Source of the DNA: Bifidobacterium sp.
GTDB taxonomy: Bacteria > Actinomycetota > Actinomycetes > Actinomycetales > Bifidobacteriaceae
DNA: 64,000 bases
NCBI GenBank assembly: GCA_024104275.1
Contig: JAGGHK010000003.1
Location: 152,609-216,608, forward strand
Direction: 5' to 3'
Shown: positions 32,526 through 48,821 of the stretch, piece by piece
How the letters are laid out: each line of letters opens with the position of its first letter
Numbering within the stretch: position 1 is the stretch's first letter
The notes under the pieces: generated by a model
What the model was told of the DNA's origin: nothing
Seen by the model: only the letters and a program-made list of their open reading frames with translations
Databases searched by the model: none
Position numbers and translations under genes: made by a program

Positions 32526-32719
32526 ACCGCGCTCTCACCGCGGCCACGCAACACTTGCGCTCGTAGCCGGCAATCTAAAAGTCTACGTTCGTCACGGCGG
32601 ACACCGACACTCGCGGATTAGCACACGAAGGGATCAACGCCATCGGAATTTGGCAACTTGCAGAATCACCATGTTTTATTATACGTCAACGTATGCAAAA
32701 AAGAAGCCAAACCGACGTT

Positions 32720-32940
32720 CTTGGCGCACCAAGAAACCCAAAAATTGAAGAATGGGCATTATTTCTTTAAATTTTGAGGGTCTTGGCGCGCCAAGAAAGC
32801 CCAAAAACGAAGAATGTGGGCCATATCTTCAAATTTCGGGGAACTTGGCGCGCCAACATACCCAAAAAATGAAGAATTGATGCCCGTTTTCTTATTTTCG
32901 AGCATCTTGGCGCGCCAACATAGACTAAAACAGCGGTTTG
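32720..32940. repeat. 62-bp tandem palindrome array, four units
   Basis: Palindromes CTTGGCGCACCAAG or CTTGGCGCGCCAA start at 32720, 32782, 32844 and 32906: exact 62-base steps. Each of the first three is followed by a conserved A-run and GAAGAAT, then a degenerate AT-rich half; the fourth is cut short. Sequence left of each palindrome (T-run, GGG) is partly complementary to that right of it (CCC, A-run), giving a long imperfect hairpin. The array fills most of the gap between dapE and the RNase E/G gene. No cas genes; the unit is conserved beyond the 'repeat' part. Confidence 0.85.
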
Positions 32941-46947: not shown

Positions 46948-47598
46948 ATGGCTCCTGAAATGAACGATTTCGAATTCGACCGGCGGTTCTTCTGCCGGAC
47001 CATGCCCGCGGAACTTGACGACGGCAGCGCGCCGACGCTGATCGTGCAGAGCTACTATGTTCATTCGGATAATTACGCGCTGCGCGCGCGTCTGATAAGC
47101 CGGAAAATCCGTATCGAAATGAACGCCGACACCGACGCGATGGCGGTGCTCGACCAGTACCGAGACAGCTTCACCGAAGCGTCCGTCGCCATCAAGGGCC
47201 CGTCCGTGGGCGGTACGCGTTACGAGGCCGAGCGCGAAATCGACGCCAATATCGCCGCGGAACTCATCAAGCGCGGCGGCGAGATCATCATCAAGAACCG
47301 TTTCGCTGCGTGGATCGGCGAGGACGGCTGGGACATCGACGTGTTCGGCGGGTCCAACGCGCCGCTGGTGGTGGCCGAGGCCAAACGCAGCCGGCCGGTC
47401 ACGAATCTCATCATCCCCGATTTCTGCGTCACCGAAATCACCGATCAGGCACGTTTCTCCAACGATGGGCTCGCCGGCAGGCCGTTTGCGACCTGGAGCA
47501 AGGACTTCGACCGAGAGCTGGCCGAACAGGGTCCCCATTTCGAGCAGATCTACGGCCGCAACCGTCATGAATCTTCGACTTCAGACGCATCTTTCTGA
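46948..47598 (+). CDS. CYTH-domain protein (triphosphate tunnel metalloenzyme family)
   Basis: 216 residues. DFEFDRRFFCRTMPAEL corresponds to the ExExK-like N-terminal motif, here with changes (E-F-D-R-R). PTLIVQSYYV and YALRARLISRKIRI give the paired strands with Arg side chains. WDIDVFGGSNAPLVVAEAKR, FCVTEITDQARFSNDGLAGR and the final PFATW fit CYTH proteins. These bind triphosphates in a beta tunnel; activity may be triphosphatase or cyclase. A TAGACT box 6 bases before ATG suggests a leaderless mRNA. It ends where the 51-bp array starts. Confidence 0.8.
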   Translation: MAPEMNDFEFDRRFFCRTMPAELDDGSAPTLIVQSYYVHSDNYALRARLISRKIRIEMNADTDAMAVLDQYRDSFTEASVAIKGPSVGGTRYEAEREIDANIAAELIKRGGEIIIKNRFAAWIGEDGWDIDVFGGSNAPLVVAEAKRSRPVTNLIIPDFCVTEITDQARFSNDGLAGRPFATWSKDFDRELAEQGPHFEQIYGRNRHESSTSDASF

Positions 47599-47780
47599 CG
47601 GCGACGTCATAAAAGTGCACTTTGCTGCGTCTTAGATGCACTTTTCCAACGGCAGCGTCACCAACATGCACCTTACAGATGGCAGAGTGCACTTCTTCGA
47701 CGGTGACGTCAGATAAGTGCATCTAGGCCAAGCCAAGGTGCATGTTTCAAACGGGGGCGTCAGAAAAGTGCACTCTGCGG
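47598..47780. repeat. 51-bp-period palindrome array, 3.5 units, sites alternating 21 and 30 bp apart
   Basis: A conserved start ACGGYGRCGTCA lies at 47598, 47649, 47700 and 47751, exact 51-base steps. Each unit holds two copies of a GTGCAC-type core (RTGCAY): 47615, 47636, 47666, 47687, 47717, 47738, 47768, spaced 21, 30, 21, 30, 21, 30. Flanks (AAA...TTT) extend several into AAAGTGCACTTT-like palindromes. It fills the gap after the CYTH gene. No ORF is supported, although 51 bases is 17 codons and part reads open on the minus strand. Confidence 0.85.
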
Positions 47781-47849: not shown

Positions 47850-48821
47850 TCAGTACATCAACGTGGAGAGGCGACGACGGGCGGCCTTGAGGCGAGGGTC
47901 GTCCGGCTCGGGAATGACGAAGTACTCGAGCAGACGCTTGCGAACCGGCTCCAGATCGGCCTTGTGCCCGGCCGCGAGGAAATCAAGCAGACGCGAGAAT
48001 GCGTCTTCGATCTGGCCGCCGATCATATCGATATCGGCGACGGCAAGCTGGGCGTCGACATCGTCGGGATGCTCGGCCGCGGCCGCACGGACCTCACGCA
48101 CGTCGGCGCTGCCGGAACGCGCCAGCAGCAGGGCCTTGGAACGCTCACGAGCGGCCAACGCGTCGTTGGGGTTCGCTTCAAGCACCTGAGCATAGGCCTC
48201 GGCGGCACCGGCGTAGTCACCGTCGGCCGCGAGCTGATGGGCCTGCTGGTGCTCCGGCGGCACCTGTTCGGCCGCATCCGCTCCCTCACCCGCAGCAGCG
48301 TCGGCATCCGGATCGCCGGAATACGGCGCAGTACCGGTGACTCCGGCCTGCTGGGCCAGCTGCACGATCTGCGGCAGCAAGGTGTCGGTAATCTGGCTCA
48401 ATTCCTCGTCGCTCGGCAGCCCTTCAAGAATCGGCATGGGCCGTCCTCCGATAAGCGCGAATAACGCCGGCGCGCCCTTGATCTGGAAGGCCTGGGCGAT
48501 ATTCGGCTCTGCGTTGATGTCGATACGGGCCAGCTGCAGCTGCCCTTTCATCCCGTTGACGGCATCCCCGAGTTTTTTGGCCATCGCGAACAGGCGGTCA
48601 TCCGTGGGAATCCACAGCAACAGCACCACCGGATAGGTGGCGGAGGTCTGCAGAACCGCTTGGAACGTGGATTCGGTGACATCGATGACGTAGCCGCCTG
48701 CGCTCGGCGCACCGCCGGCCTGACCAGGCTCGGCCTGCACCTGATGCTTGATCGAACTCAAATCAACCGCACCCGCCAATGAAATGCCCGGATTCGACCC
48801 GGAATTGTTTGCTGCTGCCAA
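47850..48821 (-). CDS. YbbN-like thioredoxin-fold protein with TPR-like C-terminus
   Basis: 323 residues from TTG 48821 (AGAAGG before it). Residues about 45-155 form a thioredoxin fold: VTESTFQAVLQTSATYPVVL, LLWIPTDDR in place of the CXXC site, ARIDINAEPNIAQAFQIKGA, PALFALIGGRPMPILEGLPS. The C-half has repeated helices (GDYAGAAEAYAQVLEANPND), tetratricopeptide-like. Such YbbN/CnoX-type proteins act as chaperone-like holdases. Lack of both cysteines rules out disulfide chemistry. It is on the same strand as the lipoprotein, 135 bases apart, so linkage is uncertain. Confidence 0.85.
   Translation of the reverse strand: MAAANNSGSNPGISLAGAVDLSSIKHQVQAEPGQAGGAPSAGGYVIDVTESTFQAVLQTSATYPVVLLLWIPTDDRLFAMAKKLGDAVNGMKGQLQLARIDINAEPNIAQAFQIKGAPALFALIGGRPMPILEGLPSDEELSQITDTLLPQIVQLAQQAGVTGTAPYSGDPDADAAAGEGADAAEQVPPEHQQAHQLAADGDYAGAAEAYAQVLEANPNDALAARERSKALLLARSGSADVREVRAAAAEHPDDVDAQLAVADIDMIGGQIEDAFSRLLDFLAAGHKADLEPVRKRLLEYFVIPEPDDPRLKAARRRLSTLMY

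What the first reader, a model, noticed from the sequence alone, without database searches (positions are those of the whole stretch)
47598..47780. Helically phased palindrome array with alternating 21/30-bp steps
Seven RTGCAY sites occur at 47615, 47636, 47666, 47687, 47717, 47738 and 47768. The steps are 21, 30, 21, 30, 21, 30, within an exact 51-bp repeat whose start ACGGYGRCGTCA recurs four times. 51 bp is about five DNA turns, so all sites face nearly one side of the helix. This looks like a binding array for a dimeric DNA-binding protein (regulator, chromosome-organising or centromere-like), not random repeats. Degenerate bases between the sites while spacing stays exact argue for selection on spacing.
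Basis: partly seen in the sequence, partly recalled or inferred. Interest (0 to 1): 0.72.

Follow-up and report, generated by a model that had tools for sequence, protein, structure and literature searches.

The report
Palindrome arrays around the replication origin
The repeat belongs to a family of precisely spaced DNA arrays that sit between genes mostly in the half of the bacterial chromosome around the replication origin, which suggests docking sites for a protein that organises or guards the chromosome rather than a local gene switch.

Summary
The seven RTGCAY sites with 21/30-bp steps are real. They belong to a dispersed family of 51-bp units found in 12 of 112 genus genomes and in none of 15 other genera sampled. 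Of 160 steps between units, 140 are exactly 51 bp. TGCA, ACG/CGT and AAA/TTT blocks are conserved; the spacer centre is random. Pairing covariation is absent, no common coding frame was found, flanking genes share no evident function, and parS occurs separately. The same gaps carry arrays in several species, and conserved columns diverge half as fast as spacers. The main new fact is position: 70 of 84 loci and 24 of 29 ortholog groups lie in the origin half. Complete scans found 11 arrays in 400 kb around one origin and none in 400 kb around each of two termini. Best reading: docking arrays for an unidentified sequence-specific protein with a chromosome-scale role, working like Noc/SlmA sites. 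No protein was found; a BIME-like topology element and a REP-like relic remain live rivals.

The parts
47585..47779 (.). The array: about 3.8 units of 51 bp; unit = RTGCAY - TTT - GACG(SYRS)CGTC - AAA - RTGCAY - 15-bp variable spacer, nearly symmetric on both strands
   Evidence: unit HMM hits cover window 47587-47779; self-inverted repeats
47585..47590 (.). degenerate eighth site ACGCAT, in phase, inside the 3' end of the upstream ORF
   Evidence: start of the first unit
47615..47620 (.). site GTGCAC
47636..47641 (.). site ATGCAC
47666..47671 (.). site ATGCAC
47687..47692 (.). site GTGCAC
47717..47722 (.). site GTGCAT
47738..47743 (.). site GTGCAT
47768..47773 (.). site GTGCAC
47598..47609 (.). 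second palindromic block ACGGCGACGTCA, centred in the 30-bp step; similar blocks start at 47649, 47700 and 47751
   Evidence: conserved ACG/CGT columns
46948..47598 (+). upstream ORF (216 aa, no Pfam or NCBIfam match); its stop lies in the first unit
47850..48821 (-). downstream, convergent gene: TPR_20 with a weak thioredoxin match

Best explanation
The array is one of a set of intergenic docking arrays (1 to 18 detected per genome in ten genomes, 4 in the window's own, not exhaustive) for an unidentified, sequence-specific, probably dimeric DNA-binding protein with a chromosome-scale role. SHOWN: a 51-bp unit with two palindromic blocks (AAA-RTGCAY-TTT and GACG-SYRS-CGTC) held in fixed register; conservation of base identity without compensatory pairing; the same gaps occupied in several species; strong enrichment in the origin half and none found in the terminus DNA scanned in full. 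INFERRED: a dimer reads the palindromes, the 21/30-bp register lets neighbouring dimers bind cooperatively as a multivalent platform, and protein-loaded platforms mark origin-proximal DNA, either to keep septation off it (working like Noc or SlmA sites) or to compact and segregate it. The choice between those two is a guess.
For: Family and register. Conserved blocks vary almost only by transitions, with G/C swaps of about 1% or less at the core G and C columns of the unit, which argues for base-specific reading. Covariation lies below most shuffles for both palindromes (479 and 494 of 500 shuffles score at least as high). At the window locus the array differs from that of G054 by one whole 51-bp unit. 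Conserved columns differ at 64/584 against 70/337 for spacer columns, Fisher p = 6.5e-5, in six pairs; 22 of the 23 pairs compared go the same way. Origin bias: 70 of 84 loci in the origin half, tenths from origin to terminus 24,18,7,12,9,6,5,2,1,0; 24 of 29 ortholog groups, p = 2.7e-4; 11 arrays in 400 kb around the G057 origin against 0 in 400 kb around the terminus of G057 and of G093, down to 14 bits, decoys 0. dnaA places the origin; in G054 and G093 GC skew changes sign there and about half-way round, and intergenic DNA is not richer in the origin half. Thirty flanking proteins from 15 of 29 groups have no evident common function.
Against: No binding protein was identified. The family is confined to 12 of 112 genus genomes, so it cannot serve a step that the whole genus needs in this form. 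The per-genome rotation test, which keeps clustering, gives only p = 0.024 to 0.36, and orthologous loci are not independent. 14 of 84 loci lie in the terminus half, one in G054 at 0.83 of the way. Conserved columns were defined on the same data in which their divergence was measured. Some gaps lack the array in one genome.
Confidence: 0.5

Rival explanations
1. BIME-like topology element: the helically phased array wraps DNA gyrase (or is bent by HU) and relieves supercoils between genes.
For: The AT profile has its largest harmonic at 10.2 bp (p = 0.01; 0.03 with symmetry kept) and predicted curvature exceeds shuffles (75.7 against 57.2 degrees, 67 arrays, recalled parameters). In E. coli, gyrase has a 130-bp motif with 10.75-bp GC periodicity, cuts BIME-2 elements and shows an ori-ter gradient (PMC6379681, passages read).
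Against: Conserved columns keep base identity, whereas the gyrase motif is called degenerate, with phased GC content. The any-harmonic test is not significant (p = 0.27).
Confidence: 0.2
2. REP/REPIN-like selfish repeat, spread long ago by an enzyme encoded beside it and now decaying in place.
For: Dispersed intergenic palindromes with copy-number changes. A conserved 321-356-aa gene with weak AbiEi-like similarity is flanked by arrays on both sides in five genomes, reminiscent of RAYT genes flanked by REPs (PMC2817692, abstract). Array-free counterparts exist: 6 of 213 comparisons of homologous gene pairs, at two loci; most fetched stretches were chosen for their arrays, so this undercounts.
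Against: Many positions are old and shared (17 of 29 groups occur in more than one genome). Register and motif are maintained while spacers drift. The protein matches no transposase family in the libraries searched. A fall from 42 loci in the first fifth to 1 in the last is steeper than I would expect from replication dosage alone.
Confidence: 0.2
3. Local regulatory operator or attenuator array for the adjacent genes.
For: 51 of 96 arrays lie in tandem gaps, hence upstream of a gene.
Against: 29 of 96 are in convergent gaps, as in the window; the flanking genes examined share no evident function, and one array sits between pstA and pstB.
Confidence: 0.05
4. RNA hairpins: terminator, sRNA or a CRISPR-like array.
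For: Both palindromes would fold, and the paired cells exceed every slid control (78% against at most 50%, and 70% against at most 48%), as any symmetric consensus would; the 15-bp spacer is variable.
Against: Pairing covariation is lower than in most shuffles; no terminator-like call in the array; a separate hairpin lies beside one array, by eye; the only Rfam match is far below its cut-off (22.7 against 95 bits).
Confidence: 0.03
5. Coding tandem repeat (51 bp = 17 codons; 21 and 30 are multiples of 3).
For: 39 of 48 arrays have at least one frame open throughout, and some arrays lie in long ORFs.
Against: No third-position pattern is visible in the column table (read by eye, no formal test); the open frame differs between arrays, 9 of 48 have none, and the window array has stops in all six frames.
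Confidence: 0.02

Closest known systems
Noc binding sites (NBS, Bacillus subtilis, Staphylococcus aureus)
   Same: Scattered palindromic sites under-represented near the terminus (PMC4726725, passages read)
   Different: NBS have a 14-bp consensus, about 70 sites in B. subtilis; Noc as a ParB paralog is recalled. Here tandem 51-bp arrays with another sequence, and no ParB paralog was seen to track them
SlmA binding sites (E. coli)
   Same: 24-52 palindromic sites, under-represented at Ter
   Different: Not tandem arrays of this kind (recalled); another phylum; no SlmA homolog was sought here
parS
   Same: Origin-proximal palindromes
   Different: Canonical parS is present separately: 6-10 matches with at most one mismatch in each of the 12 array genomes, 0-14 in the other 100; sequence and array form differ
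REP/BIME elements (E. coli and others)
   Same: Intergenic, palindromic, regularly spaced, dispersed
   Different: Here no sign of a pairing constraint, a fixed 51-bp register and an origin bias

Membership tests
parS centromere | TGTTTCACGTGAAACA-like site | tested here: not met
   The unit consensus lacks it; real parS copies occur separately
Noc binding sites | palindromic sites depleted from the terminus | tested here: met
Noc binding sites | NBS consensus and a ParB-paralog Noc | tested here: not met
   The array consensus differs from the NBS consensus (recalled). TIGR00180 gives 2 matches in ten of the 12 array genomes and 3 in G094 and G000. One listed match per genome is a ParB 8-65 kb from dnaA where both lie on one contig; a distant second ParB-like gene is listed only for G094 and G000. 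The list is cut: I take the other unlisted matches as the N-terminal piece of the same gene, as shown for several other genomes
nucleoid occlusion system | bound protein inhibits septation over DNA | not testable with these tools
   needs cells
SlmA binding sites | SBS consensus and a SlmA protein | not tested
   no search for SlmA was made
REP/BIME | dispersed intergenic palindromic repeats | tested here: met
REP/BIME | stem-loop maintained by compensatory change | tested here: not met
REP/BIME | associated RAYT tyrosine transposase | tested here: inconclusive
   An array-flanked gene exists but matches AbiEi only weakly and no transposase family; its spread over the genus was not tested
CRISPR | near-identical repeats, spacers of about 30 bp, cas genes | tested here: not met
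   Spacers are 15 bp and repeats degenerate; no cas family named among the 30 flanking proteins
minisatellite | recent near-identical tandem copies | tested here: not met
   Not seen by TRF in the window; 201 of 208 units distinct; some arrays, e.g. in G054 near 117 kb, do hold identical copies

The most novel reading that the evidence does not exclude
The arrays are the DNA half of an unrecognised origin-domain system in one bacterial lineage: a multivalent docking platform that marks the origin-proximal half for nucleoid occlusion or segregation, built on tandem 51-bp arrays rather than on single sites and run by a protein unrelated to ParB/Noc.
Probability: 0.3. Interest if true: 0.87.

Novelty: new variant of a known kind. 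Interest (0 to 1): 0.7.

Why it matters
Few bacterial site families are known whose layout marks the origin half of the chromosome (parS, Noc and SlmA sites; list from memory). A new one, with a fixed two-palindrome register and a narrow spread of species, would give a direct handle on how this lineage places its division septum or arranges its chromosome. The handle is concrete: the array is a ready bait for finding the protein.

Tried and rejected
Rejected: RNA hairpin, common coding repeat, terminator, parS or a Noc-like ParB paralog, regulon, replication-polar motif (unit orientation along or against the fork 40 to 26 of 91 arrays, the rest neutral), phage or plasmid element (no match; near relatives may be left out there).

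Led nowhere: one search used a pattern with a one-base spelling error and is void. Literature: nine searches. Seven looked for this family (all but 65 and 66); the rows they listed (titles and abstract starts) show no paper on it, and searches listed only 15 of 21 and 10 of 61 papers. Searches looked for the analogues. Seen of papers: PMC4726725 and PMC6379681 (passages), PMC2817692 (abstract).

Data caveats. Units: 208 were kept out of 504 HMM hits on both strands (plus strand, E at most 1e-3, gapless). The array lists come from search tables cut at the best rows, so arrays are missing: the full scan shows one at G057 113 kb that is not in the list. Six clusters under 22 bits were dropped. 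The six pairs were picked after seeing all 23, so that no locus counts twice; three of the 23 pairs (with L053) are not orthologous. Gene calls are my own codon-score ORF calls, not annotations. Most NCBIfam names of flanking genes are below the curated cut-offs; PstA, PstB, PurA, glutamate dehydrogenase and the NAD diphosphatase are above. Curvature used wedge parameters recalled from memory.

Full report
WHAT IS THERE. The seven sites and their 21/30 steps are as described. The array fills a convergent gap between a 216-aa ORF of unknown family (46948-47598, +) and a TPR_20 gene with a weak thioredoxin match (47850-48821, -). It is not an exact repeat: what is exact is the register. A degenerate eighth site (47585) extends it into the end of the ORF.

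A FAMILY, NOT A ONE-OFF. A search of the window's own genome found further copies elsewhere, on the same contig and on another. BLAST over 101 genus genomes found relatives in 10, the window's own included; one of these, G025, had a single marginal hit and is not among the profile matches. A profile built from 64 two-unit stretches found the family in 12 of 112 genus genomes. In a sample of 151 genomes from 16 genera of the family it was found only in this genus, in 9 genomes. Searches of over 40 genomes use stricter filters, so weak cases may be missed. The pair RTGCAY-N15-RTGCAY is clearly raised in five of the array genomes (26, 20, 17, 12 and 11 hits in G057, G054, G093, G094 and G048; reversed controls 0, 0, 0, 0, 1). 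In the other seven it is 1 to 8, like many array-free genomes; G100 has 14 against a control of 4 but no profile match.

ANATOMY. From 208 units in 41 loci (201 distinct) the unit reads RTGCAY-NTTT-NN-GACG-SYRS-CGTC-NN-AAA-N-RTGCAY plus a 15-bp spacer. The TGCA cores, ACG/CGT and the A/T tracts inside the 30-bp step carry about 1.05 to 1.8 bits per column, the A/T tracts beside the spacer 0.7 to 1.1, the spacer centre 0.02 to 0.03. Of 160 steps between neighbouring units, 140 are exactly 51 bp; the rest are 30 (1), 46 (2), 50 (2), 52, 53, 59 (one each) and 98-102 (12, of which 5 are 102). The unit is nearly its own reverse complement, so the array has no clear direction, and its weak direction does not follow the replication fork.

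WHAT IS SELECTED. Four findings bear on this. (a) Base pairing is not selected: for both palindromes the covariation score falls below most shuffles (479 and 494 of 500 score at least as high). The paired cells exceed the slid controls (78% and 70% against at most 50% and 48%), which the symmetric consensus alone explains. (b) A common coding frame is not selected: I see no third-position rhythm in the column table (no formal test), and the window array has stops in all six frames. 39 of 48 arrays do have some open frame, but not a common one. (c) Base identity is selected: core G and C columns vary by transitions and hardly ever by G/C swaps. (d) The constraint is current: in six orthologous pairs the conserved columns differ at 64 of 584 positions and the spacer columns at 70 of 337 (p = 6.5e-5). 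22 of all 23 pairs agree in direction, the exception being L069/L073; three of the 23 (with L053) proved not orthologous. Spacing rhythm: 10.2 bp is the largest harmonic of the AT profile, p = 0.01, or 0.03 keeping the symmetry, but the any-harmonic test gives 0.27. Predicted curvature is moderately raised (75.7 against 57.2 degrees; 78% of shuffles lower). I take the phasing as suggestive only.

OLD, FIXED POSITIONS. The window locus carries an array in G054, G094, G057 and G048 as well. Against G054 the window copy differs by exactly one 51-bp unit; the others differ by larger blocks, and G057 and G048 share a 1-bp gap. Over the fetched loci, 96 arrays (10 genomes, at least 22 bits) fall into 29 ortholog groups by flanking genes, 17 of which have members in more than one genome. 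In the window's group the six members with known positions lie at 0.25 to 0.39 of the origin-terminus distance; the window's own distance is unknown because its genome is in 19 contigs. Contexts: 51 tandem, 29 convergent, 13 divergent, 2 overlapping an ORF, 1 undetermined. Thirty flanking proteins from 15 of the 29 groups show no evident common function: kinase, glycosidase, PstA/PstB, ClC channel and PurA, helicase, glutamate dehydrogenase, response regulators and others, most names being below curated cut-offs. Of 213 comparisons of homologous gene pairs, the partner had an array in 207 and none in 6, at two loci: G093 lacks the one that G054 has near 1.40 Mb, and G054 lacks one that five other genomes have (the fetched stretches were mostly chosen for arrays). 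At the first of these a separate hairpin with an A- or T-run stands by the gene end in both genomes (by eye), so there the array is not the terminator.

THE ORIGIN BIAS. dnaA was found once in each of the 12 genomes. In G054 and G093 the GC skew changes sign at dnaA and about half-way round, with one discordant sample in G054, and intergenic DNA is no richer in the origin half (20 samples of 16 kb each). Of 84 loci (arrays merged within 5 kb) in eight single-contig genomes, 70 lie in the origin half; the tenths from origin to terminus hold 24, 18, 7, 12, 9, 6, 5, 2, 1 and 0. A first list read from the search tables gave 74 of 88. Two genomes whose records do not start at dnaA (G029, G004) follow the rule, so it is not an artefact of numbering. 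Counted by ortholog group it is 24 of 29 (p = 2.7e-4; KS p = 0.001). As an unbiased check I took whole stretches: 400 kb around the G057 origin hold 11 arrays, 400 kb around its terminus hold 0, and 400 kb around the G093 terminus hold 0, even at 14 bits; reversed decoys hold 0. Against this: a rotation test that keeps the clustering is weak genome by genome (p = 0.024 for G093, 0.075 to 0.36 for the other seven), and G054 has one array at 0.83 of the way to the terminus. Several loci lie on opposite replichores in different genomes yet at similar distance from the origin.

HOW IT MOST LIKELY WORKS. Shown: register, base-specific conservation, lack of RNA-pairing and common coding signature, shared positions, origin bias. 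Inferred: a dimeric sequence-specific protein docks on the palindromes, neighbours cooperate through the 21/30 register, and the loaded platforms label origin-side DNA. This resembles Noc and SlmA sites: both are under-represented in the Ter region (PMC4726725, passages). Membership fails for Noc: the sequence differs, and no ParB paralog was seen to track the arrays (list cut). SlmA was not tested. Canonical parS is present beside the arrays. The gyrase/BIME rival also predicts an origin gradient and helical phasing (PMC6379681, passages) and stays open. So does a REP-like origin, for which the best lead is an AbiEi-like gene bracketed by arrays in five genomes.

NOVELTY. Seven text searches for this family listed no paper on it (the library holds open-licence papers only, and searches showed part of their hits). 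I rate it a new variant of a known kind: origin-marking palindromic sites, here in tandem 51-bp arrays.

Noticed in passing
window 32719-32918: A second palindrome array: TTGGCGCGCCAA (first copy with one mismatch) at 32721, 32783, 32845 and 32907, exactly 62 bp apart. The exact 12-mer occurs once in 1.84 Mb of fetched stretches of G054, G057 and G093 and never as an array there.
   Followed up: partly
L038 1885-2850, L051 2680-3645, L058 1224-2264, L044 2509-3579, L178 7821-8864: A conserved 321-356-aa protein of unknown family (weak AbiEi similarity; a D...EYDG...K pattern that recalls PD-(D/E)XK nucleases, from memory) whose gene is flanked by the arrays on both sides in five genomes.
   Followed up: partly
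window 46901 and 46913: Two more RTGCAY sites 12 bp apart just upstream of the ORF that ends in the array; the pair and its 701-702-bp distance to an array site recur in loci L010, L012 and L013.
   Followed up: no
L064 513-2639: A second gene bracketed by arrays, in G057: an ATPase_2/DUF234 protein.
   Followed up: no
L153 and L138: The most terminus-near array found (G054, 0.83 of the way) has an array-free counterpart in G093, so that array was gained or lost on its own.
   Followed up: partly
L127 (G054 2220000-2236000): A 1457-bp gap between two genes without an array in G054, where G094, G048, G057, G004 and G096 have one between the homologous genes.
   Followed up: no
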